From Stenotrophomonas maltophilia (GTDB lineage Bacteria > Pseudomonadota > Gammaproteobacteria > Xanthomonadales > Xanthomonadaceae): a stretch of 64,000 nucleotides of DNA. The notes under the pieces were generated by a model. It saw nothing but the letters and a program-made list of their open reading frames with translations. It had not been told where the DNA came from and ran no database searches. Shown here in pieces: positions 27,924 through 57,521 of the stretch. The stretch lies in contig NZ_CP015612.1 in NCBI RefSeq assembly GCF_002138415.1, forward strand, positions 2,210,001-2,274,000, given 5' to 3'. The first letter of the stretch is position 1. Every line of letters begins with the position of its first letter. The position numbers and the translations under genes were made by a program.

Positions 27924-27924
27924 C

Positions 27925-31222: not shown

Positions 31223-31223
31223 G

Positions 31224-34452: not shown

Positions 34453-34453
34453 G

Positions 34454-35155: not shown

Positions 35156-35157
35156 CC

Positions 35158-37557: not shown

Positions 37558-38017
37558 TGTGCTGCCCCGAGCCGTTGGGGCGATGCGGCGGCGGCTGGTT
37601 GGTGATGCCCCAGAACATGCCCAGGCCCTGGATGGCGTCGAAGAACTCCTTGAAGTCCACCGGCTTGACCACGAATGCGTTGACGCCCAGTTCGTAACTG
37701 CGCACCAGATCCTGCTCTTCGCGGGAGGAGGTCAGCATCACCACTGGCGTGCTGCTCAGGTTCGAATCGCCACGGACCTGCTCCAGCACTTCCAGGCCAT
37801 TCACCTTGGGCAGCTTCAGGTCGAGCAGCACCACCACCGGCCCGCCGTGGTTGGCGCCGGCGAATTTGCCTTCGCAGCGCAGGTAATCCAGCGCTTCGGC
37901 GCCGTCACGTACATGGATGACATCGTTCAGCAACTGGCAACGCGACAGCGCCGCCAGCGTCAGCTCTGCATCCTTGGGGCTGTCCTCTACCAGGAGGATC
38001 GGCCGCAGGTCCCTCAT
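37550..38017 (-). CDS. Rcp1-like single-domain response regulator
   Basis: A 155-residue receiver of the phytochrome-associated Rcp1 type: ILLVEDSPKDAELT, insertion with LRCEGKFAG, phospho-acceptor in VVLLDLKLPKVNG, TSSREEQD and VKPVDFKEF. The ATG at 38017 overlaps the phytochrome stop by 4 nt. In the family such receivers take the phosphate from the bacteriophytochrome kinase, and the tight gene order (bphP, receiver, hybrid kinase) suggests a phosphorelay. Confidence 0.94.
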   Translation of the reverse strand: MRDLRPILLVEDSPKDAELTLAALSRCQLLNDVIHVRDGAEALDYLRCEGKFAGANHGGPVVVLLDLKLPKVNGLEVLEQVRGDSNLSSTPVVMLTSSREEQDLVRSYELGVNAFVVKPVDFKEFFDAIQGLGMFWGITNQPPPHRPNGSGQHNA

Positions 38018-40254
38018 GGGTGATCTCCTGTGGAACGGGGTAGGGTGAAGTGGATCGTGGCGCCCTTGCCGGGTTCGCCCTCGGCCCAGGTGCGGCCGCC
38101 ATGGCGGCCGATGATGCGGCGCACGTTGGCCAGGCCGATGCCGGTGCCTTCGAATTCCTCGACGTGATGCAGGCGCTGGAATACGCCGAACAGCTTGTCC
38201 ACGTAGCGCATGTCGAAGCCGCAGCCGTTGTCACGCACGAAAAAGTGGTCTTCGTCGACGTTGCGCTCGTGACCGACCTCGATAACGGCCTGATCGCGCT
38301 CGCGGGTGAACTTGATCGCGTTGGCAAGCAGGTTCTGCCAGACCAGGCGCAGCATCGTCGGGTCGGCTTCGACCTCCGGCAACGGTGCAAGCGTCCACTG
38401 CACGTCGCGACCTGCGTAGTCCAGGGCCAGGCTGCGGCGCACATCCTCGGCCAGCGCGGCCATATCCAGCCGCACCCGGCCCAGCGTGGAGCGGCCCATC
38501 TGCGAGAAGCTCAGCAGGTCGTCCACCAGCGTTCCGGCGGATTTGGCCGACTCCACGATCGTATCCAGGAAGCGGCGCTCGGTATCGTTGAGGCGCTCGC
38601 CGGCCGAGCTGCCCAGCAGTTCCGAGTAACCGACGATGTGGCGGAATGGCGCGCGCAGGTCGTGGCTGACCGAATAGGAAAACGCTTCGAGTTCCTTGTT
38701 GCTGCGGACCAGCTGCTCGTTGAGCTCAGCCATTTCCTCGGCCTTGCGCAGCACGATGTCGACGATGGCCGTGCGCATTTCGTGCGCGGCATCGCGGTCG
38801 GCGTCGTTCCACGGCAGGCTGCGCTGCTGGACGATTTCCTTCCAGGCCTCGAAGGAGCTGCGCGGCGAAAGTGTTACGTCGGGTGCTTCGGTCTTGCGTG
38901 GATCGCCGCCCCAGCGCACGGTACGCACCACCTCCGGTCGGAACCACATCAGGTAGCTGTCGTGCAGCTGCGAGATGGACACCGCCAGTACGCCGCTGGC
39001 CACGTCGGACAGGCGCGCACCGGGCGCCCAGTCGGCTGCCAGATGGTCACTGCAGTACGTTTCCTGCCCGGCCTGCTGTGCGGCCAGCCAATCGGCCAGG
39101 GCCAACACGTCGGTCGCGGGCGGGCACTGGCCCACACGCATGCAGTCGCCCTTGTGCACAATGGCGGCGCCTGTGGCACCGGTCAGCGACAGCAGGCTGG
39201 CTTCATCGTGGCGCAGCGCAGCCATGAAATCCTCGTCGCCGGCCATACGTGCCAGCAGCTTGACCAGCACCGAGCGGCGCGCCACGCGCTCTTCGATGGC
39301 GCGTGCACGCTCCTTCAGGGCGATCTGCAGTGACAGGATCTGGCCCATGAATTCACAGGCGGTGCGCACGTGATAGGGCAGGCGGCGCGGCTGCACCGTG
39401 TGGCAGGACACCAGGCCCCACAGCTGGCCCTCATGCACCAGTGACACCGACATCGACGCGCCAGTGCCCATGTTGCGCATGTACTGCAGGTGCACGGGCG
39501 AAACGCTGCGCAGCACGGCCAGGCTCAGGTCGGTAGCCGGCGCATTGCGATGGTCCTCGGCCCGCATCAGCGGGGTAGGGGTATAGCTGTTGTCCGCGAT
39601 CAGGCGCACCCGATTGCGGCGGTACAGCTCGCGGGCCTGCGCAGGAATGTCCGACTCGGGGAAGCGCAGGTCCAGGTAGGACGGCAACAGGCCGTTGCCA
39701 TCCTCGGCGACCACGATGCCGTTCCAGCCGGGATCGAACTGGTAGACCAGGGTGCGGTCGAAGCCGGTCAGCCGGCGCATGTGCGCGGCCGCCAACTGGC
39801 ACAGATCTTCCACGGTGGTGGCCGATTCGATGCCGCTCATCAGTTCGCGGATCGACGGATACAGTTCTTCCAGCGAACCAGGCTGGCCGGGAACCGGCGC
39901 CTCCAGCTCGATCAGCAGATCGGTGGCGGAGCGATGCACCAACAATTGATGGCGGCCGTGGCCATCCAGGTGCACGGCGCCGACATGCGCGCTGCTGCCC
40001 ATCGTGGCCTGCTGGAACAGCGCCTGAAAGGGCGCCAGCACGCCGCCCAGTACCTCGCTGACATGCTGCATCAACGGTTCGCCGAACTGCTGCAGCAGTC
40101 CGGGATGACTGACGGCGCGCTCGCGCACCCGCAGGGACTGCGGTTCAACGACCAGAAGCACGCCGTAGGGTTGGATCGCGCCGGGGGTGTGGATCGGTTC
40201 GCGCGCGCAACTGGACAAGGCAGTGTCGTGCGTGGACTCGGCAGAAGGCATCAA
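38014..40254 (-). CDS. bphP: bacteriophytochrome histidine kinase
   Basis: A 746-residue red/far-red photoreceptor. PAS-GAF-PHY sensory core: the biliverdin-binding cysteine is C16 in SSCAREPIHTPGAIQPYG, the GAF has FPESDIPAQARELYRRNRVR (DIP motif intact), and the PHY tongue keeps LSPRSSFEAW. HisKA follows with FSYSVSHDLRAP and HATPase with NLLANAIKF, DNGCGFD and GTGIGLANV. All key residues are present, so it should bind biliverdin and autophosphorylate. No heme oxygenase gene (bphO), which often precedes bphP and makes biliverdin, is adjacent. It heads a three-gene operon. Confidence 0.96.
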   Translation of the reverse strand: MMPSAESTHDTALSSCAREPIHTPGAIQPYGVLLVVEPQSLRVRERAVSHPGLLQQFGEPLMQHVSEVLGGVLAPFQALFQQATMGSSAHVGAVHLDGHGRHQLLVHRSATDLLIELEAPVPGQPGSLEELYPSIRELMSGIESATTVEDLCQLAAAHMRRLTGFDRTLVYQFDPGWNGIVVAEDGNGLLPSYLDLRFPESDIPAQARELYRRNRVRLIADNSYTPTPLMRAEDHRNAPATDLSLAVLRSVSPVHLQYMRNMGTGASMSVSLVHEGQLWGLVSCHTVQPRRLPYHVRTACEFMGQILSLQIALKERARAIEERVARRSVLVKLLARMAGDEDFMAALRHDEASLLSLTGATGAAIVHKGDCMRVGQCPPATDVLALADWLAAQQAGQETYCSDHLAADWAPGARLSDVASGVLAVSISQLHDSYLMWFRPEVVRTVRWGGDPRKTEAPDVTLSPRSSFEAWKEIVQQRSLPWNDADRDAAHEMRTAIVDIVLRKAEEMAELNEQLVRSNKELEAFSYSVSHDLRAPFRHIVGYSELLGSSAGERLNDTERRFLDTIVESAKSAGTLVDDLLSFSQMGRSTLGRVRLDMAALAEDVRRSLALDYAGRDVQWTLAPLPEVEADPTMLRLVWQNLLANAIKFTRERDQAVIEVGHERNVDEDHFFVRDNGCGFDMRYVDKLFGVFQRLHHVEEFEGTGIGLANVRRIIGRHGGRTWAEGEPGKGATIHFTLPRSTGDHP

Positions 40255-40503
40255 GGGCGGGACTCATGATTCGTGGATGGCTGGAATGGCCCAGCGTCGC
40301 ATCCGGTATGCATGGATGGTGAAGCAAAATCGTGCATTCGCCTACCAGCACGTGCGCGTGAAGAACGTTTCATTCAAACCTGAACTCTTCATCTGGACAT
40401 TCCAACAGCACTTGCATGTTTCGCGAAAGGTACATGCGCGCTGCACGCGCGCTCGACACCGACTTGCCTAGAGTGAACGCACATTCCTGAGTGACCACGT
40501 CCC

Positions 40504-40797
40504 GTGAACCTGCAGACCTTGCCTTCAACGCCATACCGCATGCTTGCCGACAGCTGCCAGTTTGAACTGCTGGATGTGGATGCGTTGCAGGACCCGGCCA
40601 GTGGACGCCTGCTTCACCTCTACTCGCTGGTTGCACGGTGCATGAGCTGCGAAACGGTGTTCAAGGCCGAGGAAGGGCAGGGACTGGTCAGCCATACCGC
40701 CGCACGCGTGGTGCGATGCCCCACGGGTTGTGGCCAGCAGGCGTTCAAGCCGGCGTTGCTGCGTGCATGGCGGCCGCAGCGCGTCGCACAGGCCTGA
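40504..40797 (+). CDS. hypothetical small cysteine-rich protein
   Basis: A 97-residue protein starting with GTG at 40504. Two cysteine pairs, CMSC (about residues 46-49) and CPTGC (about 72-76), 22 residues apart, resemble a zinc ribbon or rubredoxin-like knuckle. The C-terminal tail is basic (FKPALLRAWRPQR). No family recognised. It is divergent from bphP across a 250-nt gap that is A/T-richer than average and should carry both promoters, and convergent with tspO. Confidence 0.6.
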   Translation: MNLQTLPSTPYRMLADSCQFELLDVDALQDPASGRLLHLYSLVARCMSCETVFKAEEGQGLVSHTAARVVRCPTGCGQQAFKPALLRAWRPQRVAQA

Positions 40798-40813
40798 GAG
40801 TCCTGATCCCGGC

Positions 40814-41299
40814 TCACAGCAACCCGGGATTGGCCCGCCACACCGCGAAGTTCAGCGCCGAGGCGAACGATATCCAGGCCAGGTAAGGCAGCAGCATCAC
40901 CGCCGCACCGCGATGGAGGCGTGCGAAGGCAACAACCGTTGCGCACACCAGCGTGATCAGTACCAGGATGTCGGCGAAGGCCAGCGCACCCAGTTTCCAG
41001 CCGAAGAACAGCCAGCTCCAGAGGGCATTGACGGCCAGCTGCACCAGATAGAGCACCAGGGCCGGCTGTGCGTTGCGCCAGCCGCGTTCGCGCCAGACCA
41101 GCCACGCCGCAATGGCCATCATCGCGTAGAGCAGGCTCCACACCGGGCCAAACACGCTGGCAGGCGGTGCCCAGGCAGGCCGGGCGAGGGTGGCGTAGAA
41201 GCTGGCGGCGGATGTCGATGCCCACGCGCCGACTGCCGCCGCCGCAAAAGTGACCACGCCCCATCCCAGAAGACCCATAACCTGTGAACGCCGCTTCAT
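40814..41299 (-). CDS. tspO: TspO/MBR family tryptophan-rich sensory protein
   Basis: A 161-residue five-helix membrane protein from the ATG at 41299 (15 nt further in than the longest frame). Family marks: FYATLARPAWAPPASVFGPVWSLLYAMMA, VWRERGW, VNALWSWLFFGWKLGALAFADI and LPYLAWISFASALNFAVWRANPG. TspO binds porphyrins and cholesterol-like ligands. In Rhodobacter it tunes photosynthesis genes to oxygen. Its nearness to a bacteriophytochrome and a singlet-oxygen sigma system fits porphyrin or light stress handling. Confidence 0.93.
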   Translation of the reverse strand: MKRRSQVMGLLGWGVVTFAAAAVGAWASTSAASFYATLARPAWAPPASVFGPVWSLLYAMMAIAAWLVWRERGWRNAQPALVLYLVQLAVNALWSWLFFGWKLGALAFADILVLITLVCATVVAFARLHRGAAVMLLPYLAWISFASALNFAVWRANPGLL

Positions 41300-41370
41300 T
41301 CCGTGCCGCTCCATCCTGCGTTTACACGCTCATACGAACGGAGGCGGCAAATGGATGCAGCCCGGGACGA

Positions 41371-43566
41371 TCAATCTGAAGAACCTGCAGTGCTTCCACT
41401 TCCGCCAGCGGGCAACAGCGAAGGGCGCTGGTCGAACCATTCGCGCGCCTTGGCCAGATGCCACTGGCGCTTTTCGCCATCAAGCTCGATGCCCGCGCCC
41501 AGCAGCCCCCAGCGCAGGTAGAGATCGCCACGCTTGCGCTGCTCCAGAAGATCCAGCCGCGCACGTACCGCCAGGCGATCATTCTCGGCCCGCAGGCCGT
41601 CGATCAGCAGATGACCCGGGCGCCAGCGCAACGTGGCCTGTGCATCGACTTGGCCGGAGTCGAGCAGCGACAGCGTCCAGCGCGGGTAGTCGGTGCGCTT
41701 GGCGAACACGGCCAGCAGGGGGCGTGCATCGCTCAGGGTCAGATCGGTGGTAGCGTCCACCTGGAACGGGGACTGCGCGTCGATGCGGCCCCGCTTGAAC
41801 ACAGCACGGCCTTTCCACGCGTTGCTGGAGTCGGTACCGGCCACCTGCACATTGCGCAGTTCCACGGTGGTGCCGGACAGATCGAAGTGGCGCTGGTTGA
41901 AGTCCCCGCGGCGAAGCGTCGCGTTCACGTCGACATCGCCGCCCATGTCCAGGCCTGCAACCTTCGCGCTGGCGTTGCGCCCCTGCAGGCGCGCGGTGCC
42001 GTGGCCGATGCGGCCATCGGTGTCGAGCGTGGCGTCGCCGCTGAGGCTGCCGGTGCCACGCAGCAGGCGCACCTGTCGAGAGCCAAGGTAGCGGTTGTAG
42101 GCGGCCAGGTCCGGGATGGTCGCTTGGCTGAAGCGCAAGCGCGCACGAACACCCTTGCGCAGTTCCTGCAGGCGTCCATCGCCGGTGAGGTCCACGGCCA
42201 GGTCACGCCCGTCGAACAGCCGCACATCCTTCGCATCGCTTGGGCGCGCGGTGAAGCGGGGCAGGCGGATCGCCAGCTGAGCCTGAGTGGGGGCGCCGGC
42301 CTTCAGCTCGCCATGCGCACTGGCCGTGCCGGCCAGGCGCACGCCAGCGACCTCGGCCACGGCGGCAGCCGAAGGAATGTCCACGGTGCTGCCTTCGATC
42401 AGTTCGCCATTGCGCAGGCGCAGATCGGCCTTCAGGGTGCCGCCGCCATCCAGCTGCAGCCACGGCTTGCGCACGAACAGGGCAGGGATCCAGTTGAGCG
42501 AGGTGAAGGCCCATTCGCCACGCACGGTGCCGGAGCTGCGTTCCAGCAACTGGGCAGGGTGCTGGAATGGGATCTCGCGCCCGGTGATGTGCAGGTCGGC
42601 ATCGATGCCGGCGGCCGAATCCGGGCGTGGCGGCAGGCGGGCCTGCAGGCGCAGGTCGTTGGCCACATTGAGCTGCAGGGCCAGCACACCGCGATTGGGC
42701 GCGCCATCGCCGAGGAAGAGCGGTACCTGCCAGAGTGCGTGGTCACCGGGTTGCAGCTGGCCGTCGATCATGTGAACTGCCAGTTGCAGGCGTCCGGGCA
42801 CCGGCGCGCTGGAGATGCGCGGCGTCTGCGCGTCCGTATCCATGCGCAGGCCCTGGCTGCGCGCGTCCACCTCAAGTTGCGCATGCAGCAGCTTCAACTT
42901 GGCCAGGCCGGGCGCCTGGTCGCGATAGTGCCGCGGATAGCTGAAGCGCGCGGTCAGGTCCATGTCGCCCAGCAGCTGCACGCCGTCATAGCTGGTGTCT
43001 GCCTTGCTGAACGAGACCTCGGAATCGAACAGTTCGGACGGGCCGCCGCGCAGCTGCTTGAGGAACCCGACCGTGCCGCGGCCCTTGCCGATGATCAGCA
43101 GCTTGCCGAGCCGGGCACTGCGAATGCTGTCGCTGTGGATGGCGTCGAAACGCAGGGTCCAGCCCTGGTCGCTACGCGGCGGTGACGGAATGGCGTCCTC
43201 GACGCGATTGATTTCGGCCGACACACCTGTGGCCTGCAATCGGGGAACCCGCACTTCGCGGCTAAACAGGGGCAGGACCGCCAGGCGGGCGCTGGCACGC
43301 TCGGCATGCAGTACGTAGACGGTATGGTTGACGTGGCCGCGCATATGCACGTTCCAGGCAATGACGTGGCCAGGCAGCAGCGTGATGGCCGGGCCGGTCG
43401 TCATCACGAACTTGTGCGGCTTGCGGTTGGTGACCTGGTCGAACAGCGGGGTGTTGAGGAAGATGTTGCCGGCCAGCAGGTAGAGAACGTACACGCCCAG
43501 CAGGATGTAGCCAGCGACGCGCCATCGGCGGAGCCGGTGCGGGATGCGCGCGGAAGTAGGGGGCAT
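41371..43566 (-). CDS. AsmA/DUF748-like large envelope protein
   Basis: A 731-residue protein with one N-terminal membrane anchor (VAGYILLGVYVLYLLAGNIFL) and a long periplasmic beta-rich body. Repeats of the type LRLQARLPPRPDSAAGIDADLHITG and AELRNVQVAGTDSSNAWKGRAVFKRGRIDAQ suggest the AsmA/TamB beta-groove fold, which shuttles phospholipids between membranes. The start is the ATG at 43566; ten more codons upstream would need a TTG. C-terminus runs KREWFDQRPS-type polar tail. Family assignment is on pattern, so AsmA-like rather than a named member. Confidence 0.8.
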   Translation of the reverse strand: MPPTSARIPHRLRRWRVAGYILLGVYVLYLLAGNIFLNTPLFDQVTNRKPHKFVMTTGPAITLLPGHVIAWNVHMRGHVNHTVYVLHAERASARLAVLPLFSREVRVPRLQATGVSAEINRVEDAIPSPPRSDQGWTLRFDAIHSDSIRSARLGKLLIIGKGRGTVGFLKQLRGGPSELFDSEVSFSKADTSYDGVQLLGDMDLTARFSYPRHYRDQAPGLAKLKLLHAQLEVDARSQGLRMDTDAQTPRISSAPVPGRLQLAVHMIDGQLQPGDHALWQVPLFLGDGAPNRGVLALQLNVANDLRLQARLPPRPDSAAGIDADLHITGREIPFQHPAQLLERSSGTVRGEWAFTSLNWIPALFVRKPWLQLDGGGTLKADLRLRNGELIEGSTVDIPSAAAVAEVAGVRLAGTASAHGELKAGAPTQAQLAIRLPRFTARPSDAKDVRLFDGRDLAVDLTGDGRLQELRKGVRARLRFSQATIPDLAAYNRYLGSRQVRLLRGTGSLSGDATLDTDGRIGHGTARLQGRNASAKVAGLDMGGDVDVNATLRRGDFNQRHFDLSGTTVELRNVQVAGTDSSNAWKGRAVFKRGRIDAQSPFQVDATTDLTLSDARPLLAVFAKRTDYPRWTLSLLDSGQVDAQATLRWRPGHLLIDGLRAENDRLAVRARLDLLEQRKRGDLYLRWGLLGAGIELDGEKRQWHLAKAREWFDQRPSLLPAGGSGSTAGSSD

Positions 43567-43699
43567 GTACTGCTCTAAGGGCCGGAATTCACTCAACTAT
43601 TGCCGAACCGATGGCGGTGGCGCGTGAAGCGGGTGCGGGGCACTTGCTGGATTCTGCTAGTGTCCGCCTTGCCCGCTACGCCGATCCGCGAGGAATCGC

Positions 43700-44179
43700 A
43701 TGGAAATTCGAGCTGCCACCGCCGGTGACTTCGACGCCATGTGGGCGATCTTCAAGGCGGCCATTGCGATGGAGGATTCGCTTCCATTCGCCGGCACCTT
43801 CGAGGCCGGAGCCTTTCGGGACCATTGGTTCGGAGTGCAGGCGGCCTTTGTGGCCGTTCTGGAAGGGCGCGTGGTCGGAATGTACAAGATGGGCGCCAAC
43901 TACCCGGACCTGGGGGCGCATGTGGCCAGCGCTACCTATGTGGTCGATCCGCTGACGCAAGGGCGTGGCATCGGGCGGGCGCTTGTGGCGCACAGCCTGG
44001 ATCGCGCCAGATCGGACGGGTTCCTGGCCATGCAGTTCAATTACGTGGTCAGCACCAATGCGCCAGCGGTTGAGCTGTACGGGAAGCTGGGGTTTGCGGT
44101 GGTCGGGACGCTACCGGAGGCGTTCCGGCATCGGGAGCTGGGCCTGATTGACGTCTATGTGATGCACAGGTTTCTGTAG
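43700..44179 (+). CDS. GNAT family N-acetyltransferase
   Basis: A 159-residue acetyltransferase. MEIRAATAGDFDAMWAIFKA opens the fold, and VVDPLTQGRGIGRALVAHSLDRARSDG is the acetyl-CoA pyrophosphate loop (motif A, Q/RxxGxG/A). The C-terminal part has NAPAVELYGKLGFAVVGTLPEAFRH, typical of phosphinothricin/amino-acid acetyltransferase relatives. Substrate not predictable. Single gene between the divergent AsmA-like gene and a convergent AraC regulator. Confidence 0.92.
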   Translation: MEIRAATAGDFDAMWAIFKAAIAMEDSLPFAGTFEAGAFRDHWFGVQAAFVAVLEGRVVGMYKMGANYPDLGAHVASATYVVDPLTQGRGIGRALVAHSLDRARSDGFLAMQFNYVVSTNAPAVELYGKLGFAVVGTLPEAFRHRELGLIDVYVMHRFL

Positions 44180-44199
44180 GTCGACGTGGGGCAGGGGGT

Positions 44200-45048
44200 T
44201 CACGGTGAGCGGCCGGCACTGGTTCCGCGCACGAAGGCGGCGGCCAGCCGCAGTGCATCGTTGCTGCCACGATCACTGCGCAGCGCGTTGGCCAGTCGGC
44301 CGGGTGTGACGCCGGTCCAGCGCACCAGATCATGCGTGGCATGGGCCTGGTCGCTGTAACCGTGGCGCGCCGCAGCGGAGGCGATGCTGGTGGCTTCTCC
44401 ATCCAGCGTGTGCAACAGAGCCTGCAGCCTGCAAACCCGGGCATATTCTTTCGGGGTCATGCCCACGGCCGCCAGAAAACGCGACTGCAAGCCACGCAGG
44501 GACATGCCAAGCCGCCGTGCCAGTTCGGCGATGCGCAGAGTGCCTTCCGCTGCATCCAGTTCCGCAACGGCCAGTTCGATGCGCTCGTCCAGGGCGAAGC
44601 TGGCACAACGATCCCGCAGCACCTGCCAGAGGGGCTCGGGCGTTCCGCTGGCGGCGCTTGCCCGCGCGGCGGCGCTGAAGGTCTCGGCAAAGATGGCATC
44701 CAGCGTGTACAGGTCCGGCGCCTGGTCACGAAGCCCGGGCAGGCGGACGCCGGCAATCAAGGCGCTCGCGGCCGGCTGCAGGCGCACGCCGATGCACGAA
44801 ACCGGGCCGACAGCCTGCAGACGAATCGGGCCGCATTGCTGTGCAGCGAAGCAGAACGGCAGATCGGAGCGGATCCGGCCATCTGCCCCATGAAGATGCA
44901 GCGGCACGCCCAGTTCCGCCAGCAACTCGCAGCGGCCATCGGGATAGATGACCTGCACGTCATGGCCGGGGGCTTCGTCCCGCAGCCACCATAGGCACTG
45001 GACATGACGGCGCAGGTCGTCGGGGGCAGGGTGCTCGCGGTAGTCCAT
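44200..45048 (-). CDS. AraC family transcriptional regulator
   Basis: A 282-residue regulator from the ATG at 45048 (MDYREHPAPDDL). The N-terminal ~160 residues are a DUF6597-type sensor domain (HVQCLWWLRDEAPGHDVQVIYPDGRCELL). The C-terminal AraC domain has two helix-turn-helix units (RIAELARRLGMSLRGLQSRFLAAVGMTPKEYARVCRLQALL, then GYSDQAHATHDLVRWTGVTPGRLA). It is divergent from the exported DUF6265 protein with 90 nt between starts and may control it. Confidence 0.9.
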   Translation of the reverse strand: MDYREHPAPDDLRRHVQCLWWLRDEAPGHDVQVIYPDGRCELLAELGVPLHLHGADGRIRSDLPFCFAAQQCGPIRLQAVGPVSCIGVRLQPAASALIAGVRLPGLRDQAPDLYTLDAIFAETFSAAARASAASGTPEPLWQVLRDRCASFALDERIELAVAELDAAEGTLRIAELARRLGMSLRGLQSRFLAAVGMTPKEYARVCRLQALLHTLDGEATSIASAAARHGYSDQAHATHDLVRWTGVTPGRLANALRSDRGSNDALRLAAAFVRGTSAGRSP

Positions 45049-45138
45049 GCGGCATCGGACGCCATCCTGCGCATTTTTACAAGCGCCCTTGGCAGCCCTG
45101 CCGCTAGCCTGCAGCCAATCCATCCAGGAGGTCTGTAC

Positions 45139-45600
45139 ATGTTGAAGTCGAAGGTGGCAGTGCTGGGCGCAGGCCTGGCGTTGGGAAGCGGCGCGGCCAT
45201 GGCTGCACCGGCCGAGTTTGACTGGCTGGCCGGGCATTGGTGTGGCGGTACCGAGGAGCGCAGGCTTGATGAGGTCTGGCTGCCCGAGGCCGGCGGCGCC
45301 TTGCTTGGCATGTCGCGCACGCTGAGCCGCGGCGATATGGAGTCATTCGAGTACATGCGCCTGGTGCCTGCAGGCAAAGCGGCTGGCCTGCATGTGCAGC
45401 CGAACGGCGTGGCGCCGACGACATTCGTCATTGCCGACCATGGCGCAAACTGGGTGGTGTTCGTGAACCCGCAGCATGACTTCCCGAATCGCATCGAGTA
45501 CCGGCGTGATGGCGCTGCGCTGAAGGCGAGCATTTCCGGTCCGGGAGATGATGGGAAGATCCTGCGGATTCCGTTTGACTATCAACGCTGCGGGGATTGA
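45139..45600 (+). CDS. exported DUF6265 family protein
   Basis: A 153-residue protein with a signal peptide (VLGAGLALGSGAAMAAPA) and AGGAGG 8 nt before the ATG at 45139. The mature part keeps the family stretch FDWLAGHWCGGTEERRLDEVWLPEAGGALLGMSRTL and ends NRIEYRRDGAALKASISGP. This is the DUF6265/PF19780 pattern, a small calycin-like barrel of unknown ligand. It is the last ordinary core-like gene before the dif site 77 nt further on. Confidence 0.82.
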   Translation: MLKSKVAVLGAGLALGSGAAMAAPAEFDWLAGHWCGGTEERRLDEVWLPEAGGALLGMSRTLSRGDMESFEYMRLVPAGKAAGLHVQPNGVAPTTFVIADHGANWVVFVNPQHDFPNRIEYRRDGAALKASISGPGDDGKILRIPFDYQRCGD

Positions 45601-45676: not shown

Positions 45677-45704
45677 CGGTAACATAATATACATTATGCG
45701 AAAT
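45677..45704 (-). other. dif: probable chromosome dimer resolution site dif (XerCD)
   Basis: Read on the minus strand: XerC-type arm ATTTCGCATAA, centre TGTATA, XerD-type arm TTATGTTACCG. The middle 17 bases (CGCATAA through TTATGTTA without the outer ends) equal the gammaproteobacterial dif core; only the outer bases of the XerD arm (ACCG against AAAT) differ. KOPS octamers (GGGNAGGG) found by eye point at it from both sides. Plus strand at 4302, 6588, 13808, 20642, 21168, 22456, 27025, 32151, 33040, 35578, 36937, 38038, 39573, 40675, 42480, 42552, 44189 and 45024; minus strand at 49098, 50528, 50666, 51640, 53295 and 58627, with none seen the wrong way. It would mark the replication terminus. 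Confidence 0.85.
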
Positions 45705-46147
45705 GCTGTATCGGTCTCTTGCTGCCTTCGCTGGCCCCACATGGCAATGGCTGAGGCTCTGGCTTGGCTCTTGCCTCCCTGTTGGAACGCCCGACAAGGA
45801 TGAGCTTGGCTGGGCACATGTTCACCCCTGAGGGTCACCAGTTGGAGCCTTGTGACATGACCTGGTGGTCCCTGACCTGCAACTTCGCGCGGGAATGGCG
45901 GCTGATGATGGCTGAGGCGGTTCCCCGGGGCCTCAGCTGCACGAAAAGCTTTGACCACGGCGAAATCCAGCGTCATCTACCTAGCCGAAGCCCTCAGAAT
46001 TCGACATGAACGGCGGTTTGGCGTTCGTGATCCCGGCCCCGGCGCCGAAACGTCCAATGTGGTCTACATGAGCCGTGGGCTTAGGCCCAGTCAGCGCGGA
46101 TGAAGCGCTTCCGTAGGGCCCCTGCACTCTGCCCCTGCAGCCACTGT
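45705..46147. other. gene-free stretch right of dif
   Basis: About 440 nt (550 nt counting the left flank) without a convincing gene. Short open frames on both strands have no start signals and no coherent fold. Lower G+C than the left side and no repeat recognised. No second dif-like core was found within the window, so there is no sign of a complete Xer-integrated phage here. Confidence 0.5.
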
Positions 46148-46747
46148 CTATTCCAAATGAAATCCGTCCGGCACTGGTGGCAGGGCTAGTTGACCATTGA
46201 AGTTGCGTACACCTTCTTCCCCGCAAGTGGCCGCTGTGGTGGTCCTGAAGATGGTGCTCGGACTCGAAGTGTGCTCGTACTCAACGATGATGACAATTCG
46301 AACTAGATGAGAGCCCCTTAGCACCTTCCAATAGTCGTCGCTAGAGAGCTTCCTATCGCTGTTGTTGACTACACATTGACTTTGCCCAGGAGCGAGAACT
46401 GTGAGCGTGCCATCACCGATTCGCTTCTGTATGCGAGCCCTAGCAATTCCACTGTGCTGCTTAGCCTGGTCCGCCGGCAGAATCTCCCAATATGATTCCA
46501 CCCTTAGACGAACTGCGGGCGAAGTGCCCTCAACGGTAATCCATTGAGCGAACGGTACTGGCCGATCCGAAACGATAGCTCCGGTCAAAGTGCACGGTCC
46601 CTTCATGACGACCCATGGGCGAATCTGTGCGAGGGAAATGCGTTGCTGTAGTTGATGAGCATCGCGCGAGAGCTTGAGTGCGCTTCGTGCAATCAAGAGC
46701 GAGCCCAAAGTTCCCAGTAAAGCGACTCCATCGATCCAGTCGGCCAT
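46148..46747 (-). CDS. hypothetical protein with one N-terminal membrane segment
   Basis: A 199-residue protein. GGGAGAA lies 3-9 nt before the ATG at 46747. A single hydrophobic helix (VALLGTLGSLLIARSALKL) is followed by a helix (RDAHQLQQRISLAQIRPW) and a beta-rich cytosolic or periplasmic domain (RLRVESYWEIL, LTVLAPGQSQCVVNN, LVRIVIIVEYEHTSSPSTIFRTTT). No family recognised. G+C is clearly below the local average and codon use is relaxed, which together with the dif-side position suggests horizontal gain. Confidence 0.65.
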   Translation of the reverse strand: MADWIDGVALLGTLGSLLIARSALKLSRDAHQLQQRISLAQIRPWVVMKGPCTLTGAIVSDRPVPFAQWITVEGTSPAVRLRVESYWEILPADQAKQHSGIARARIQKRIGDGTLTVLAPGQSQCVVNNSDRKLSSDDYWKVLRGSHLVRIVIIVEYEHTSSPSTIFRTTTAATCGEEGVRNFNGQLALPPVPDGFHLE

Positions 46748-46846: not shown

Positions 46847-47704
46847 CTAATCATCAAATCGTATTCTGAAGCCATTTTTCCGCACCAATGCTAATCGCAG
46901 GTCATCCCAGTTCAGCAGGAGAGGGACTGCTTCTACTAGCGATTGATCATGGTAGTGGCACGACTCCAGGCCGATGCCTGTCGTCGATGCATGATTCCTG
47001 GCCTGTTGTGCCTCTCCGTATTCGGCGATAGCCGCCTCAATGACTAGGCGACTAGATTCAACATGGGCATTGACCAGTAAGCGCAGCGCGAGGTGAATCC
47101 CATTCACCTGCTGCATGTACTCGCGCAGGATCCTCCTGAGGTAGATTCTGTCAGGAGTCTCGTCGAGGATAGACTTCTTGAACTTCCCTCGGTCAGCCGC
47201 GATCTTTTCCTTCGCTGCATACAGTCCATGTTCGCCTCTCCCACCCTCTTGCCCATCCACAGGAAGGGCGCGATGTTGGGAACGATCACGCAGTTGGCAG
47301 GTTAGTCGATAGGCAAGGCTGTTGTCATAGGCCAGAGAGGCCAGATTCTTGGCGTGACGGGCAAATTCACCTTCCTCACCGAATGACTTGAAGTCACGTG
47401 CCACTTGATCCACGTATGTCTTGCCACTGGTGAACAGATTTATTATGTGTCGATTGGCTTCCATTAGAAGCGCGTCGCCACTCTCATAGCTCCAGTCCCT
47501 GCGCAGCTCACTTCGCAGGTGGGATACGGCACAGAACTCCTCGAATGCTAGAAAGTTGCCCATAAGTAGCTCGTAGCGCCGCTCAAAGGATCCTGCGTCA
47601 ATGAGGCAATGCCGCGCGTTTGCCAAGGCAACGTGGCGATCTTGGCTGATCTCTAGGATCGTCTGGGGCCCAATATGCGCGCCCCGTAGCTGATAGATAT
47701 CCAT
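46847..47704 (-). CDS. hypothetical soluble helical protein, low G+C
   Basis: A 285-residue protein from the ATG at 47704, preceded by AAGGGG. It looks all-helical: ILEISQDRHVALANARHCLIDAGSF, EEFCAVSHLRSELRRDWSYE, LMEANRHIINLFTSGKTYVDQVARDFKSFG, LLVNAHVESSRLVIEAAIAEYG. The repeated H/R/E pairs do not match a known nuclease or toxin motif. Codon use and G+C (near 52-55%) are unlike the rest of the window, so it is probably imported. It and the gene at 46148 may be one two-gene unit, 99 nt apart. Confidence 0.68.
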   Translation of the reverse strand: MDIYQLRGAHIGPQTILEISQDRHVALANARHCLIDAGSFERRYELLMGNFLAFEEFCAVSHLRSELRRDWSYESGDALLMEANRHIINLFTSGKTYVDQVARDFKSFGEEGEFARHAKNLASLAYDNSLAYRLTCQLRDRSQHRALPVDGQEGGRGEHGLYAAKEKIAADRGKFKKSILDETPDRIYLRRILREYMQQVNGIHLALRLLVNAHVESSRLVIEAAIAEYGEAQQARNHASTTGIGLESCHYHDQSLVEAVPLLLNWDDLRLALVRKNGFRIRFDD

Positions 47705-47871
47705 GTATCCCCTTCCATCAAGACAGCCCCAACACATTGTGACATGCAGCGTTCTGCCTAGCAGATTGCAATCCAATTAACGTGACGCGTCACGCCCAAT
47801 CGCCCCACCCCATTGGCGCCCCACCCCACGCCCACTATAGTGCCAACCCCCACAAGGACGAGGCGGCACAC

Positions 47872-48627
47872 ATGCCCTATATCGGAATCGGACTCCACGT
47901 ACTGGCAGCCATCTACTTCGCGGTGCACGCCATCCGCTCGGGCCAGAGCCTCTACTGGCTCATCCTGCTCTTCTCGTTCCCGCTGCTGGGCAGCGTCGTC
48001 TACTTCCTTGCGATCTACTTCCCGGAAGCCCGCAACTCGCGCGGCGCGCGGCAGGCAATCCGCTCCGCAAAGCAGCTCATGGACCCTGGCCAGGACCTGC
48101 GTAACGCTCGCGCTGATCTGTCGCGAACGCCCACCGTGCAGAACCGGGTTCGTCTCGGCATGACGCTGCTGGATGCCGGCCAGGCGGAGGAAGCCAGAAC
48201 CCTGCTTGAGCAGGCCGCAAGCTCGCCACTGGGCGACGACCCCTACATCCTGACCGGCCTGGCGCGTGCTCGCCTCGAGTCCGGGCACGCCGCGCTTGCA
48301 GTTGAGACGCTGGACGGCCTGTTCGCCCGCCATCCGGATGTGCGTCGCAAGCCGGAACAGACCCTGCTCCATGCGCAGGCGCTGGCTGCTGCGCAGGCAC
48401 CTGGCACCCGCGCCGCGTTCGAGCGCGCCGTGGAAAGTGGAAATGATGCGGCCGCCCGCTGCCTGTTCGCCGAGTGGCTGATGGCACAACCGCAGCCCGC
48501 CGACCGTGAGCAGGCCCGCAGCCTGTTCGCCAGCATCATCGACGATGCCCAACACTGGTCGCGCCACGCACGCAGCCACAATGCCGCCTGGCTGGAGCGG
48601 ACCAAAGCCGCGTTGAAGGGCTACTGA
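47872..48627 (+). CDS. PLDc_N-type membrane-anchored tetratricopeptide-like protein
   Basis: A 251-residue protein. Two N-terminal hydrophobic helices (IGIGLHVLAAIYFAVHAIRSG and LYWLILLFSFPLLGSVVYFLAIYF) resemble the PLDc_N anchor. The rest is a helical solenoid: NRVRLGMTLLDAGQAEEARTLLEQA, DDPYILTGLARARLESGHAALAVETLDGLFARHPD, RCLFAEWLMAQPQPADREQARSLFASIIDDA, i.e. about four TPR-like repeats. The ATG at 47872 begins the membrane part; upstream codons are not conserved in character. Scaffold role likely, partner unknown. G+C returns to the genome average here. Confidence 0.78.
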   Translation: MPYIGIGLHVLAAIYFAVHAIRSGQSLYWLILLFSFPLLGSVVYFLAIYFPEARNSRGARQAIRSAKQLMDPGQDLRNARADLSRTPTVQNRVRLGMTLLDAGQAEEARTLLEQAASSPLGDDPYILTGLARARLESGHAALAVETLDGLFARHPDVRRKPEQTLLHAQALAAAQAPGTRAAFERAVESGNDAAARCLFAEWLMAQPQPADREQARSLFASIIDDAQHWSRHARSHNAAWLERTKAALKGY

Positions 48628-49080: not shown

Positions 49081-49437
49081 ATGGCCCAGCCCCACTCCCC
49101 TGCCCCGCACCCGATCCACGACGCGCCGGCCAACAGCCCCGCGTTGGATCCGAACACGCTCATCGCCCTGCTGCACAGCATCGGTTCTGGTGCCGCCTCC
49201 GATGGTCAGCCCTGGCCAGAGCGCCATCAGATGCCCGGCCGGCGCATCGCCCTGGCGGATACCGATTGCTCCCTGGCCGGCCTCCGCGTGGTGCTGGAGA
49301 TACTGCTGGCCGCGCAGCGCGCCCGCGAGAACGGCGAACTGGAACAGTACGTTGGCCCGCGCGTCATGGAGGGCCTGATCATGGCCGGGTTGGGACTCAC
49401 GGCGCACGCCATCGAACGGATGCGTCCGGAGGGCTGA
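49081..49437 (+). CDS. hypothetical small protein behind the repeat module
   Basis: A 118-residue protein. AAGGAG lies 8-13 nt before the ATG at 49081. A proline-rich start (MAQPHSPAPHPIHDAPANSPALDPN) is followed by two helices, LIALLHSIGSGAASDGQ and CSLAGLRVVLEILLAAQRARENGELEQYVGPRVMEGLIMAGLGLTAHAIERM. Families of such short proteins, each with a similar structured leader, occur in several copies in Pseudomonas and Stenotrophomonas genomes. Their role is unknown. The next frame starts directly at its stop. Confidence 0.6.
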   Translation: MAQPHSPAPHPIHDAPANSPALDPNTLIALLHSIGSGAASDGQPWPERHQMPGRRIALADTDCSLAGLRVVLEILLAAQRARENGELEQYVGPRVMEGLIMAGLGLTAHAIERMRPEG

Positions 49438-49908
49438 GTGGCGCGGTACTGCTGGGCGGCCACGCTGCTGTACATCGTGGCGGTGGTTGCAGCACAGACG
49501 CGGTGGCTGGCGCCCCCACTGCCATCTCCTATTGGGTTCCAAAGCATCAACGACGATCGATTCTCACAACTGCGCCGCCAAGCGATGCAGTTCGTGGAGT
49601 CTCGGCCACGACAGGGCTTCCAGATTGTTGAGCGGCATCGAGATGCCGAGTTCCAGATTGATTGCCGAGGCATACCAGTGCTGTGGCTGGAGAGGCGCTC
49701 GCAACATCTGCTGTTGCGTGTCTCACTGGACGCGAAGCAGCGGGCACCCGCCGTTGTGCGGTTGCGGGCGCTCCTCCAATGGCAGTTGGAGCCGTTGGGT
49801 TACCTGGAGCAGGTACTGGCTGGCGTGCCGGAACCTGTTCTGTTGGATCGCGTGCTGCAGATATTCGCGGGCGAGGTGCCTGAGGGGGTGCGATGTGGTG
49901 TGCTGTAG
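49438..49908 (+). CDS. hypothetical protein, start uncertain
   Basis: An open frame of 156 codons whose GTG directly abuts the preceding stop codon. The first ~30 residues are hydrophobic (YCWAATLLYIVAVVAAQTRWL) and could be a membrane anchor. The remainder looks like a real charged domain (RRQAMQFVESRPRQGFQIVERHRDAEFQIDCRG, LLQWQLEPLGYLEQVLAGVPEPVLLDRVLQIFAGEVPEG). No family recognised. The DNA changes character at about 49560, so the first part may be fortuitous. It ends at a SMAG palindrome. Confidence 0.45.
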   Translation: MARYCWAATLLYIVAVVAAQTRWLAPPLPSPIGFQSINDDRFSQLRRQAMQFVESRPRQGFQIVERHRDAEFQIDCRGIPVLWLERRSQHLLLRVSLDAKQRAPAVVRLRALLQWQLEPLGYLEQVLAGVPEPVLLDRVLQIFAGEVPEGVRCGVL

Positions 49909-49929
49909 TCGAGCATTGCTCGACTCTAC
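49905..49929. repeat. SMAG palindrome
   Basis: GTAGTCGAGC-ATT-GCTCGACTCTAC, GTAG-ended on both strands. It overlaps the stop region of the frame before it and the end of the convergent membrane protein gene, and may serve as their common terminator. Confidence 0.75.
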
Positions 49930-50657
49930 AGAGGCGCGGGCTGCGGCGGCTCAGGTTCGTGGATGGAGCCTTCGAGCAAGGCGACGTAGGTGTCCAGGCG
50001 GATGCGCATGCTGATCAGCATCCAGCCCAACAGGTACAGAAGCACCATGGCGAGGATTAACAACCCGCCGACCAGACTGACGTCGAAGGCGCCTGCCCAG
50101 TCGCCCCATTTCCATCCCCGGAACTGCAAATAAAACGCAATGAGCAGCGGGAATGGCCCAAGGCGTTGCAGCCCGCCGTACATCAGGCCCATGCGCTCGA
50201 TCATGTTGCTGCGCAGCTGACTGACATACTTGAGGCGGCGCTCGCGCTCAATGCGAGGGAAACGGCGAAGCTCGGTAACCACCGCTTGCCAGTGGGCGAA
50301 GTCACCGTCCATCTCCTTGGCGTGCGACAGCCGTGGCTGACTGAATTGGCGGATGCCTCTGCGGGCCGCCAGGGCGCCCCCAATAATGAAGCCCCCGATT
50401 TCGATTGCCAGGCAGGCAATAACCACTTGGAGTACTGCGCCAATAGGCAGCCATCGATCCGGAAGCTGAGCAGCAAGTATGCCGATGATCGCCGCACCCA
50501 TGCCGATGCGAAACGACCAGGTCTCCACCCTGCCCGCCTTACGGTAGATGCTATGTTCAACCAGCCCTTGCACCCGCTGGTAGAGCCAGTGGAAGGTCAG
50601 TTCCTGGTGCTTCGTCCTGTCCGGCGAATCGAATCCGCCCTCTGCCTGCATATCCAT
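49926..50657 (-). CDS. hypothetical membrane protein with four helices
   Basis: A 243-residue protein from the ATG at 50657 (MDMQAEGG). Two helices near the N-terminus (MGAAIIGILAAQLP and LQVVIACLAIEIGGFIIGGALAA), a long charged cytosolic loop (RLSHAKEMDGDFAHWQAVVTELRRFPRIERERRLKYVSQLRSNMIERM) and two further helices (FPLLIAFYLQF and VGGLLILAMVLLYLLGWMLI). The two-plus-two layout with a helical loop resembles SLATT-type effectors, but no motif proves it. The C-terminal tail is proline-rich. Confidence 0.65.
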   Translation of the reverse strand: MDMQAEGGFDSPDRTKHQELTFHWLYQRVQGLVEHSIYRKAGRVETWSFRIGMGAAIIGILAAQLPDRWLPIGAVLQVVIACLAIEIGGFIIGGALAARRGIRQFSQPRLSHAKEMDGDFAHWQAVVTELRRFPRIERERRLKYVSQLRSNMIERMGLMYGGLQRLGPFPLLIAFYLQFRGWKWGDWAGAFDVSLVGGLLILAMVLLYLLGWMLISMRIRLDTYVALLEGSIHEPEPPQPAPL

Positions 50658-50712
50658 TGCGTCCCCCCTGCCCGCCGGCGCAGATGCCGGCGCCACCATC
50701 GTAGCCGACGAC

Positions 50713-51339
50713 TCACCTCCCGGCATCGATCCAGCCCGCAAGGCGCGCACGCGCGAGATCTTCTGGCGTGTCAACATCCAGGCCCAGCTCCGGCGCTTGA
50801 AGGGCATGCACGGCATCGATGGGAAGCTGCCTCAAGCGCGCTCCAAAGCCGCGGTCACCGGTTGCACCCGCAGAGTTGAACCATGCACGCGGCACTACTG
50901 CGGGAATGCCAAGCACACTTCCGTGGCGGGTACCCGCGCACCCTGACGCCGAGACGCGGGCACCCGAAAGCAGCGCCTGCAGATGGGAGCGCTCGATTGC
51001 GGGCTGGTCGCATGCCACGACCATCACCGCAGTCACCGTGGGCAGCAGGTGTGCGCCGGCAACCTGCAGACTGCTGGCCAGGCCGCTTTCCCAGCGGTGG
51101 TTGGTTACCGGGGTGGCATCCAGTCCGGCAATGCTGGATGTCACGCCCTGTGCGTTGCCGCCCACCACCACCAACACCTGCGATGGCGCGAGCTCCAGCG
51201 CCAACCGCACTACGCGATGTACAAGGGTCTCGCCCTGCCGGGTCAGAAGCTGCTTGGGCTGGCCAAGCCGGGTGCTCCCGCCCGCCGCAAGCACGACGAC
51301 CGCATGCGCGGCCGTCACCTGCCGGGCGCGATGCGCCAT
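50713..51339 (-). CDS. mocA: MocA/MobA-like molybdopterin nucleotidyltransferase
   Basis: A 208-residue nucleotidyltransferase. The signature VVVLAAGGSTRLGQPKQLL (about residues 13-31) is the nucleotide site of the MobA/MocA family, with MVVACDQPAI (about 110) as the metal-binding loop. MocA transfers CMP to the molybdenum cofactor used by xanthine-dehydrogenase-type enzymes. It is the last gene of the operon with the paoABC-like subunits and xdhC, exactly where such a maturation factor is expected. Its start overlaps the end of the xdhC-like gene by 25 nt. Confidence 0.92.
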   Translation of the reverse strand: MAHRARQVTAAHAVVVLAAGGSTRLGQPKQLLTRQGETLVHRVVRLALELAPSQVLVVVGGNAQGVTSSIAGLDATPVTNHRWESGLASSLQVAGAHLLPTVTAVMVVACDQPAIERSHLQALLSGARVSASGCAGTRHGSVLGIPAVVPRAWFNSAGATGDRGFGARLRQLPIDAVHALQAPELGLDVDTPEDLARARLAGWIDAGR

Positions 51340-52376
51340 TGCTGCAGCTGGGCGGCGATGCTGAGCGAAATCGCCTCCGGTCCCCGCCCTCCGATGTTGA
51401 GGCCGATCGGCGATCGAAGCCTGGGAGACAGGCGGCTACGCTGATCCTGTGTCAGCAGCTTGAACAGATCCTCACGCCTTCGCCGCGGACCCAGAAGTCC
51501 AATGAAGGCAACCTCGGTACCGGCCAGGGCCACCAGCGCCTCGCGGTCCAGCTCGAAGTCGTGGTGCATCACCAGCACCGCGTCGCACGGGTCGGCATGG
51601 AGGGCCTCGGCCGGGCTCACCTGGAGCTGTGCATCCGCGCCCTGCCCCGCTGAGGACCAGCGCGCTCGTCGTTCGGCTACGCTGACCCGCCACCCCAGTC
51701 CCCGCAGCAACGGAACCAGGAAGGGCGTTTCTGGACCGCCACCCAGCACCAGAGCCCGTGGAAGCCGGGGCAACGGCAAACGCCACGCTGCTTCTCCAAA
51801 GGGCTGCGCCCCGTCCATCGGGTTCAGCTGCCATGCCTGCTCGCGATGGCCGGCGCGGAAAACGATCTGCCCCGACGTGCGAAGGTCGCGCTGGAGTGAC
51901 ACCCCCTCGCGCAGCCAAGCCTCGATCACGGTGTCGATGCCCGTCATGACCCGCAACGGCAGAAGCGCAATCCGAAGCCGGCCGCGGCAGCCGAGCGCGG
52001 ACCCACTCAACAGGTCGTCGTCACTGCGGGTGTCGATCTCGATCCAGTCGACCTGCCCTGCCGCGCTCACCTGCTCCGCGCGTCGCGCGAGCTCGGGCTC
52101 CAGGCATCCGCCACTGAGCCAGCCGACCTGGCTGCCGTTGCAGAACAGCACCATGTCGCCGGCACCGGCGTAGGTGGAGCCATCGGTTTCCAGCACCAGC
52201 GCAAGCACGGCGTGCTCCCCCGCGCGCAGGTGCGTCACCGCCGCCTCGAGCACGCCGCGCGGGCTGCCTTCGGTGAGGAAGTCCGGCGCTGCGGACAGGT
52301 GTCCGGCAGGATCCCTGGGTTCCACTCCCTCTGCCGCAGAGGGCTCCAGGACGGGTGAGGCCACGGGTCGGTCCAT
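51315..52376 (-). CDS. XdhC-family molybdenum cofactor insertion protein (PaoD-like)
   Basis: A 353-residue protein of the XdhC/CoxI family, which binds the finished molybdenum cofactor, directs its sulfuration and hands it to the enzyme. The N-terminal XdhC domain has LALVLETDGSTYAGAGDMVLF and GWLSGGCLEPEL. The C-terminal Rossmann domain has LPRALVLGGGPETPFLVPLL and ALVALAGTEVAFIGLLGPRRR. The ATG at 52376 is chosen. It lies 9 nt after the large subunit gene. E. coli PaoD has the same role and order. Confidence 0.92.
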   Translation of the reverse strand: MDRPVASPVLEPSAAEGVEPRDPAGHLSAAPDFLTEGSPRGVLEAAVTHLRAGEHAVLALVLETDGSTYAGAGDMVLFCNGSQVGWLSGGCLEPELARRAEQVSAAGQVDWIEIDTRSDDDLLSGSALGCRGRLRIALLPLRVMTGIDTVIEAWLREGVSLQRDLRTSGQIVFRAGHREQAWQLNPMDGAQPFGEAAWRLPLPRLPRALVLGGGPETPFLVPLLRGLGWRVSVAERRARWSSAGQGADAQLQVSPAEALHADPCDAVLVMHHDFELDREALVALAGTEVAFIGLLGPRRRREDLFKLLTQDQRSRLSPRLRSPIGLNIGGRGPEAISLSIAAQLQQWRIAPGR

Positions 52377-52385
52377 GCGCAAGGG

Positions 52386-56858: not shown

Positions 56859-56963
56859 GGCAGCCTCTTGAGGGGATCTGGCGTTTCCACGCGTGGACGC
56901 CCCGCAGCTTAGCCGGATTTACATGAGGAGTGCATCCGTTGGCCGGAAGCGGACGTCAGGGCA

Positions 56964-56990
56964 ATAGTCGAACATGGCTCGACTTTACAG
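56964..56990. repeat. degenerate SMAG palindrome
   Basis: TAGTCGAACATGGCTCGACTTTAC is a worn form of the GTAGTCGAGC type with one arm mismatch. It lies just beyond the stop of the Ohr gene. Confidence 0.5.
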
Positions 56991-57500: not shown

Positions 57501-57521
57501 TGGCAGGCGATCGATGGCCGC

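What the first reader, a model, noticed from the sequence alone, without database searches (positions are those of the whole stretch)
45677..45704. Probable chromosomal dif site with a KOPS polarity switch around it
The sequence shows an 11-6-11 site with the conserved dif core. By eye I found 18 plus-strand GGGNAGGG octamers to its left and 6 minus-strand ones to its right, and none in the opposite sense. A change of KOPS polarity at a dif-like site is the mark of the replication terminus. The outer XerD arm (ACCG instead of AAAT) is unusual and may be a lineage variant or a scar of an Xer-using element.
Basis: partly seen in the sequence, partly recalled or inferred. Interest (0 to 1): 0.85.

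Follow-up and report, generated by a model that had tools for sequence, protein, structure and literature searches.

The report
Chromosome dif site beside phage relic
This is the ordinary site where this bacterium untangles its two chromosome copies before dividing, sitting where DNA replication ends; one of its flanks looks like a leftover of a filamentous virus that once integrated there.

Summary
The 28-mer at 45677-45704 is the chromosomal dif of a complete 4,668,743-bp chromosome. It is the only such site there; XerC, XerD and an FtsK gamma domain are encoded. Cumulative GC skew peaks 230 bp away and GGGNAGGG polarity flips in the interval that holds it. The window has 20 plus-strand octamers to the left, 6 minus-strand to the right, none opposed. 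The ACCG end is not special: the last XerD-arm bases are degenerate in 78 genus members (6 of 78 end in AAAT), and X. campestris dif lacks AAAT too (PMC2731167). A scar exists, but on the other arm: the XerC half-site plus about 100 bp outside it match attP regions of Stenotrophomonas inoviruses SMA9 and PSH1, followed by a frameshifted phage gene and two orphan ORFs. Inovirus genes flank dif in 31 of 78 loci. Side lead in relatives: a kfrA_N/tyrosine-recombinase pair, in some genomes with Tni genes and anti-phage cargo, clusters at dif; a 67% homologue of one orphan ORF lies in one such island. The core finding is a new member of a known kind.

The parts
45677..45704 (-). dif site, 11-6-11; XerC arm 45694-45704, centre 45688-45693, XerD arm 45677-45687
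   Evidence: sequence; unique in window and genome; core present in 83 of 91 genus genomes searched; columns aligned in 78
4302..45031 (+). 20 plus-strand GGGNAGGG (KOPS-like) octamers pointing to dif
49098..58634 (-). 6 minus-strand GGGNAGGG octamers pointing to dif
45705..45808 (-). XerC-side flank of about 104 bp, homologous to DNA beside the attP core of inoviruses SMA9 and PSH1
   Evidence: 37 of 78 genomes have such a flank
45815..46097 (+). relic of an inovirus DUF3653-type gene, start lost and frame broken (two pieces in different frames)
   Evidence: tblastn pieces 45815-45919 frame 3 at 97% and 45942-46097 frame 1 at 69%; the G069 relative scores just below the DUF3653 cut-off, the G034 relative above it
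46148..46747 (-). orphan ORF of 199 aa in AT-richer DNA; no family or relative found
46847..47704 (-). orphan ORF of 285 aa (listed as 309 aa from a TTG); 67% identical homologue in a dif-adjacent island of relative G050 next to a GajA/UvrD-helicase pair
   Evidence: no Pfam, PADLOC or NCBIfam hit
47781..47794 (.). perfect palindrome CGTGACGCGTCACG upstream of the TPR gene; homology with several relatives breaks just on the dif side of it
47782..48627 (+). TPR-repeat gene, conserved chromosomal neighbour on the XerC side in several relatives
45004..45600 (+). DUF6265 gene, chromosomal neighbour on the XerD side; its end lies 108 bp from the XerC end of dif in 5 genomes
1268..1450 (+). FtsK gamma domain (part of a 795-aa open frame), 44 kb from dif

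Best explanation
The site is the chromosomal dif. XerC binds 45694-45704 and XerD binds 45677-45687. FtsK, steered by polar GGGNAGGG octamers that point to the site from both sides, pumps the DNA until the two sister sites meet at the septum, and its gamma domain switches on XerD to resolve chromosome dimers. The site coincides with the GC-skew switch, so it also marks the terminus. Shown here: sequence, uniqueness, polarity switch, presence of XerC, XerD and FtsK gamma. Inferred from other bacteria: binding, translocation and catalysis. The XerC half-site and its outer 104 bp were most likely brought by a filamentous phage of the SMA9/PSH1 kind that integrated at dif and has since decayed. 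The variable last bases of the XerD arm reflect weak constraint, not an element scar.
For: Single site in 4.67 Mb; 83 of 91 genus genomes have the core; KOPS change point and skew maximum at dif; XerC 352.4 bits and XerD 350.8 bits, both over their NCBIfam cut-offs; FtsK gamma 99.3 bits; dnaA at base 358, dif at 48.3% of the circle. Arm degeneracy: positions 26, 27 and 28 carry 0.24, 0.24 and 0.02 bits over 78 genomes. In five genomes that share the XerD-side flank at fixed distance, positions 24-28 differ by substitution without insertion. Phage origin of the XerC side: blastn to SMA9 and PSH1, attP read in both, broken DUF3653 relic, prophage genes at the same place in relatives.
Against: No experiment. 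The E. coli octamer is assumed to be the KOPS of this genus; only its polarity was tested. Positions 24-28 are less alike (56%) than the flank beside them (80%) in the five collinear genomes, which plain drift does not explain. The block 1-20,000 by dnaA shows the polarity of the right arm (0 plus / 4 minus), so the skew origin is not exactly at dnaA. The chromosome's pre-phage XerC flank was never seen, so the direction of transfer between phage and chromosome is inferred.
Confidence: 0.96

Rival explanations
1. The 28-mer is an attachment-site copy left by an Xer-using phage, and the functional dif is elsewhere.
For: Phage-like XerC flank and relic gene directly beside it.
Against: No second site in the genome at up to 2 mismatches in the core and no second exact half-site; skew and KOPS flip here; type A half-sites in relatives and the attP of SMA9 and PSH1 lack the TTATGT inner XerD arm, this site has it.
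Confidence: 0.02
2. The ACCG end of the XerD arm is the scar of an element that integrated through the XerD side (type B, TLC-like) and later left.
For: Type B layouts exist in relatives, and there the full site and the far half-site have different outer XerD arms (G002, G024, G034).
Against: The XerD-side flank of the window is collinear with G025, G032, G039 and G063, with the DUF6265 end at the same 108 bp, and the arm differs among them by substitutions only. Such diversity is genus-wide.
Confidence: 0.04
3. The 104-bp XerC flank is chromosomal DNA that phages picked up, not phage DNA left in the chromosome.
For: It occurs beside dif also in genomes without recognised phage genes nearby (for example G017 and G033), and beside both half-sites in G015, G019, G022 and G027.
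Against: In SMA9 and PSH1 it lies inside an annotated phage ORF, as attP does inside ORF12 of XacF1 (PMC5666396, abstract in the listing); 37 of 78 genomes have it, not all; in the window it is followed by a phage gene relic.
Confidence: 0.15

Closest known systems
dif of Xanthomonas campestris ATCC 33913 (Carnoy and Roten 2009, PMC2731167, passages seen)
   Same: Same core and XerC arm, ACATAATATACATTATGCGAAAT on the window strand; also without AAAT at the XerD end; 257 bp from the skew switch in that paper's table
   Different: Outer XerD arm TCCTG there, CGGTA here (plus-strand reading)
dif-integrating inoviruses: SMA9 and PSH1 of Stenotrophomonas; XacF1 of X. citri (PMC5666396, abstract only)
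   Same: XerC half-site plus outer flank as in the window; attP inside a phage ORF
   Different: The window keeps only the flank and one broken gene; no Zot or Rep homologue in the window
VGJ-phi and TLC-phi of Vibrio cholerae (PMC4246890, passages seen)
   Same: VGJ: exchange by XerC, no homology next to the XerD side, as in the type A layout here; TLC: first exchange by XerD, as the type B layout suggests
   Different: No recombination was tested here; genes and hosts differ

Membership tests
chromosomal dif | 28-bp 11-6-11 site with XerC and XerD arms | tested here: met
chromosomal dif | single copy at the skew/KOPS switch opposite the origin | tested here: met
chromosomal dif | XerC, XerD and FtsK gamma encoded in the genome | tested here: met
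chromosomal dif | XerD outer arm ending TTAAAT as in E. coli (recalled) and Vibrio (PMC2731167 table) | tested here: not met
   ends TTACCG; but 72 of 78 genus members do not end in AAAT either, so it does not define dif in this genus
chromosomal dif | XerCD-mediated, FtsK-dependent dimer resolution | not testable with these tools
   needs bench work
KOPS | polar 8-mer, over-represented and pointing to dif on both arms | tested here: met
   965 GGGNAGGG against 420 of the pattern read backwards in the genome; 61/9 and 7/72 in blocks
KOPS | bound by FtsK gamma | not testable with these tools
   needs bench work
Xer-using inovirus prophage (IMEX) | second, flanking half-site | tested here: not met
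   no second exact TTCGCATAATGTATA in the window's genome; 13 of 91 genus genomes have one 6.5-8.6 kb away on the XerC side
Xer-using inovirus prophage (IMEX) | Zot and Rep genes | tested here: not met
   no homologue of 4 Zot and 2 Rep proteins of relatives in the window at 1e-3; found in 31 of 78 dif loci at 1e-10. The window holds a relic only

The most novel reading that the evidence does not exclude
In this genus dif is not only an inovirus att site but the preferred target of a family of Tni-type (Tn5053/Tn7-like) islands that sense Xer-bound dif as 'res hunters' sense resolvase-bound res. They carry a kfrA_N/tyrosine-recombinase module at the dif-proximal end and anti-phage systems as cargo, so that the dif flank is a defence hotspot; ORF 46847-47704 of the window is a leftover cargo gene of such an island. 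A second bold reading: repeated inovirus turnover keeps the XerC arm uniform while the XerD arm drifts, which reverses the published rule that the XerD arm is the better conserved one.
Probability: 0.35. Interest if true: 0.7.

Novelty: new member of a known kind. Interest (0 to 1): 0.38.

Why it matters
It fixes the terminus of this chromosome to within a few hundred bases and shows which dif bases vary across a genus: the outer XerD arm, where published surveys call that arm the better conserved one. What looks like an odd arm is ordinary, while the inconspicuous arm is the one that a virus probably replaced. The side lead, mobile islands with anti-phage cargo beside dif, would give defence-gene discovery a landmark that one 16-base pattern finds in most genomes of the genus.

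Tried and rejected
Rejected: a second or better dif; a type B scar in the XerD arm; a half-site at the outer end of the window's relic (best similarity 11 of 22 bases, against 10-13 at the junctions of six relatives). Led nowhere: Pfam, PADLOC and NCBIfam for the two orphan ORFs; viral contigs (four pattern matches, none a relative; none); the phages collection (none; one 27% hit in Marinobacter phage PS3); PDB by sequence; two genome-contig scans meant to name the organism (no hit), so the genus is only inferred from the phage hits, which are named Stenotrophomonas phages. The structure of ORF 46847-47704, folded from the single sequence, is useless (mean pLDDT 37.6; nine earlier collecting calls found it unfinished); no fold search was made. 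Terminal inverted repeats and target duplications of the islands were sought by script: for G072 a 16-of-24 inverted match lies behind the TniA gene but the 5-base neighbours differ; none convincing for G050, G039, G057, G058, G089.

Literature: searches found no paper with all terms. Searches returned papers; I saw passages of PMC8453159, PMC11630473, PMC8649781 and PMC11472951; PMC7765201 holds neither 'dif' nor 'XerC' as whole words (82); the other papers listed were not opened. None of what I saw describes Tni-type islands at dif.

Weak points: the 20 PADLOC test proteins were chosen by hand out of 60 candidates (mostly genomes without an intact inovirus), the 19 controls come from one genome, and the one control hit is a set of helicase-type models. 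The 78 genomes leave out 5 of the 83 with a dif match (G055, G076, G080, G086, G088), whose flanks I did not fetch. Positions 7-22 of the dif alignment were selected by the search pattern (at most 1 mismatch), and my scripts also fixed parts of positions 3-12 and 19-22 (no fetched genome was lost by that), so invariance there is partly by construction; positions 1-2 and 23-28 were free. Fetched flanks range from 0.2 to 9 kb a side, so counts of prophage genes are lower bounds.

Full report
What is there. The minus strand of 45677-45704 reads ATTTCGCATAATGTATATTATGTTACCG. The 23-base core occurs once in the window and in none of 100 shuffles. The window lies at 2,210,001-2,274,000 of a single contig of 4,668,743 bases, and the core pattern has a single place in it at up to 2 mismatches. 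Neighbours are a DUF6265 gene on the XerD side (45004-45600) and a TPR gene on the XerC side (47782-48627), with 2 kb of AT-richer DNA between dif and the TPR gene.

Polarity. In the window 20 plus-strand GGGNAGGG lie left of the site and 6 minus-strand copies right of it, none opposed; the shuffle mean is 12.6 in all. Genome-wide there are 455 and 510 on the two strands, against 196 and 224 for the pattern read backwards. In 560 kb of blocks plus the window the counts are 61/9 left and 7/72 right; the control GGGANGGG gives 20/10 and 12/16. In the contiguous 204 kb the best change point puts 65 of 69 octamers in the right sense and lies between 2,255,024 and 2,259,098; the cumulative G-C maximum is at 2,255,920. 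dif is inside the first interval and 230 bp from the second. dnaA is at base 358. XerC (352.4 bits) and XerD (350.8 bits) exceed their NCBIfam cut-offs. The only FtsK gamma match of the genome is in the same window at 1268-1450.

How it works (E. coli and Vibrio model, recalled): FtsK at the septum follows the octamers towards dif, brings the sister sites together and activates XerD; XerC completes the exchange and dimers become monomers. The facts above are what that model needs; binding and catalysis were not tested.

The odd arm. I aligned 78 genomes: the window's and 77 of the 82 other genus genomes with a match. Positions 7-22 were selected by the search pattern, so their constancy says little; the free positions 1-2 and 23-28 are informative. 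Positions 1 and 2 are A and T in 73 of 78 each; position 23 is T in 78 of 78; position 24 carries 1.08 bits, 25 0.91, 26 and 27 0.24 each, 28 0.02. Only 6 of 78 end in AAAT, and ACCG occurs once. Published dif of X. campestris reads TCCTGACATAATATACATTATGCGAAAT, and that paper reports variable outer ends, but also that the XerD site is the best conserved and that A at position 25 is highly conserved (PMC2731167, passages); PMC3025954 (passages) likewise calls the XerC arm the more variable. Here it is the other way round at the outer ends, and position 25 is C in 40 and A in 37 of 78. In five genomes with a collinear XerD flank the arm differs by substitutions only; positions 24-28 are 56% identical on average, the next 32 bases 80%. 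So ACCG is not a scar; why these bases differ even more than the flank is open.

The scar on the other side. Blastn of the window's 2.2 kb against 50,697 phage records gave four records, two of SMA9 and two of PSH1, filamentous phages named after Stenotrophomonas; the match is the XerC half-site and the flank outside it. Reading the phages shows the half-site ATTTCGCATAATGTATA followed by other bases where the XerD arm should be. 37 of 78 genomes have this flank at dif. In the window it is followed by a DUF3653-type gene without its start and with a broken frame; relatives with the longer form have about 70 bases more between flank and gene. In 13 of 91 genomes a second exact half-site lies 6.5-8.6 kb away on the XerC side (a fourteenth genome has its second match on another contig; G022 and G069 have one with mismatches). 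Three genomes have the mirror layout, with centre plus XerD arm repeated on the XerD side. By Pfam, Zot and Rep_trans were found in the one type A element scanned (G003) and Zot in the three type B elements, Rep_trans in the one of them scanned for it (G024); by tblastn, Zot or Rep homologues flank dif in 31 of 78 loci, and none is in the window. The layouts correspond to VGJ-phi (exchange by XerC) and TLC-phi (first exchange by XerD) as reviewed in PMC4246890 (passages); that they work so here is inferred. After type A integration the full site keeps the chromosomal XerD arm and gets the phage's XerC arm, which is what the window shows. If phages keep resupplying the XerC arm, that would also explain why it is the uniform one here (inference).

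The two orphan genes. ORF 46148-46747 found no relative. ORF 46847-47704 starts where relatives G017, G039, G049 and G089 have the start codon of a different gene, and shares the sequence upstream of it, so it may use a captured promoter (inference). Its only close relative among the fetched loci, 67% over 283 residues, lies 6.7 kb from dif in G050, on the other strand next to a GajA homologue and a UvrD-type helicase, the make-up of a Gabija pair.

Side lead in relatives. A search with a KfrA_N protein found near dif in G039 gave 41 matches in 36 of 91 genomes, none in the window's own. 25 matches (23 genomes) lie within 3 kb of dif, 4 at 7-8 kb (in G038 and G052 just beyond a type A half-site), 9 between 18 and 77 kb, and 3 on contigs without the dif match. 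All 38 on the dif contig are thus within 78 kb of it; short contigs favour this in draft genomes, but several are complete ones. Where a tyrosine-recombinase gene accompanies it, KfrA_N is the nearer of the two to dif in 17 of 17 loci, on either side; copies are related, so these are not 17 independent events. G050 and G072 have a TniA-like gene (Mu-transpos_C) at 14-16 and 35-37 kb on the same side with a TniB gene beside it. Of 10 strong TniB matches on a contig with dif, 8 lie within 119 kb of it and 2 more than 1.3 Mb away. Of 10 cargo proteins chosen for their place, 8 matched PADLOC at 1e-5, among them a short Argonaute pair (G039), Olokun (G072), a NsnB/GajA-like ATPase (G057) and Avs3a (G025); two matches are weak. 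In a hand-picked set, 8 of 20 proteins from dif flanks and 1 of 19 from elsewhere in the window's own genome matched at 1e-10 (Fisher p 0.012). Filamentous and tailless prophages at dif, and defence genes in such prophages, are known in Vibrio (PMC11630473, passages), so defence genes at dif are not new in themselves; Tni-type islands there did not turn up in my searches. Ends and target duplications could not be established, so targeting of dif by transposition is a hypothesis.

Verdict. The core finding is right and ordinary: a chromosomal dif at the replication terminus. The unexpected parts are the phage-like XerC side and, in relatives, the accumulation of mobile islands with anti-phage genes at this landmark.

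Noticed in passing
relatives G039 (L143), G050 (L161-L162), G072 (L157-L158), G057 (L149), G040 (L037), G089 (L146) and others: KfrA_N gene within 3 kb of dif in 23 of 91 genomes; where a tyrosine-recombinase gene accompanies it, KfrA_N is the nearer gene in 17 of 17 loci; TniA/TniB genes farther out in G050 and G072.
   Followed up: partly
XerC- or XerD-side flanks of dif in relatives: L143, L158, L149, L089, L044, L047, L061, L070, L125: Anti-phage genes by PADLOC: short Argonaute with REase-TIR partner, Olokun, NsnB/GajA-like, Avs3a, Gabija GajA, RT-nitrilase, Lamassu LmuB.
   Followed up: partly
L073, L088, L091 (G002, G024, G034): Inovirus prophages in mirror layout, on the XerD side of dif with a centre-plus-XerD half-site; there the full site and the far half-site differ in the outer XerD arm.
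   Followed up: partly
window 47700-47794: ORF 46847-47704 starts at the start codon that belongs to another gene in G017, G039, G049 and G089; a 14-base palindrome CGTGACGCGTCACG marks the edge of variable DNA.
   Followed up: partly
window 1268-1450: The only FtsK gamma match of the genome lies 44 kb from dif; whether ftsK is near dif across the genus was not tested.
   Followed up: no
G000 bases 1-20000 (L092): The 20 kb beside dnaA have the polarity of the right arm (GGGNAGGG 0 plus / 4 minus, GC skew -0.025), and the first listed plus-strand octamer is at 41,981; the skew origin may lie 20-42 kb from dnaA.
   Followed up: no
window dif positions 24-28: In five collinear genomes these five bases are less alike (56%) than the neighbouring flank (80%); drift alone does not predict that.
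   Followed up: no
L050, L012, L048, L043 (G053, G012, G051, G046): Another tyrosine-recombinase gene lies about 100 bp from the XerC arm in G053, G012 and G051 (59-70% alike, a fragment in G046), all four with a T at dif position 1.
   Followed up: no
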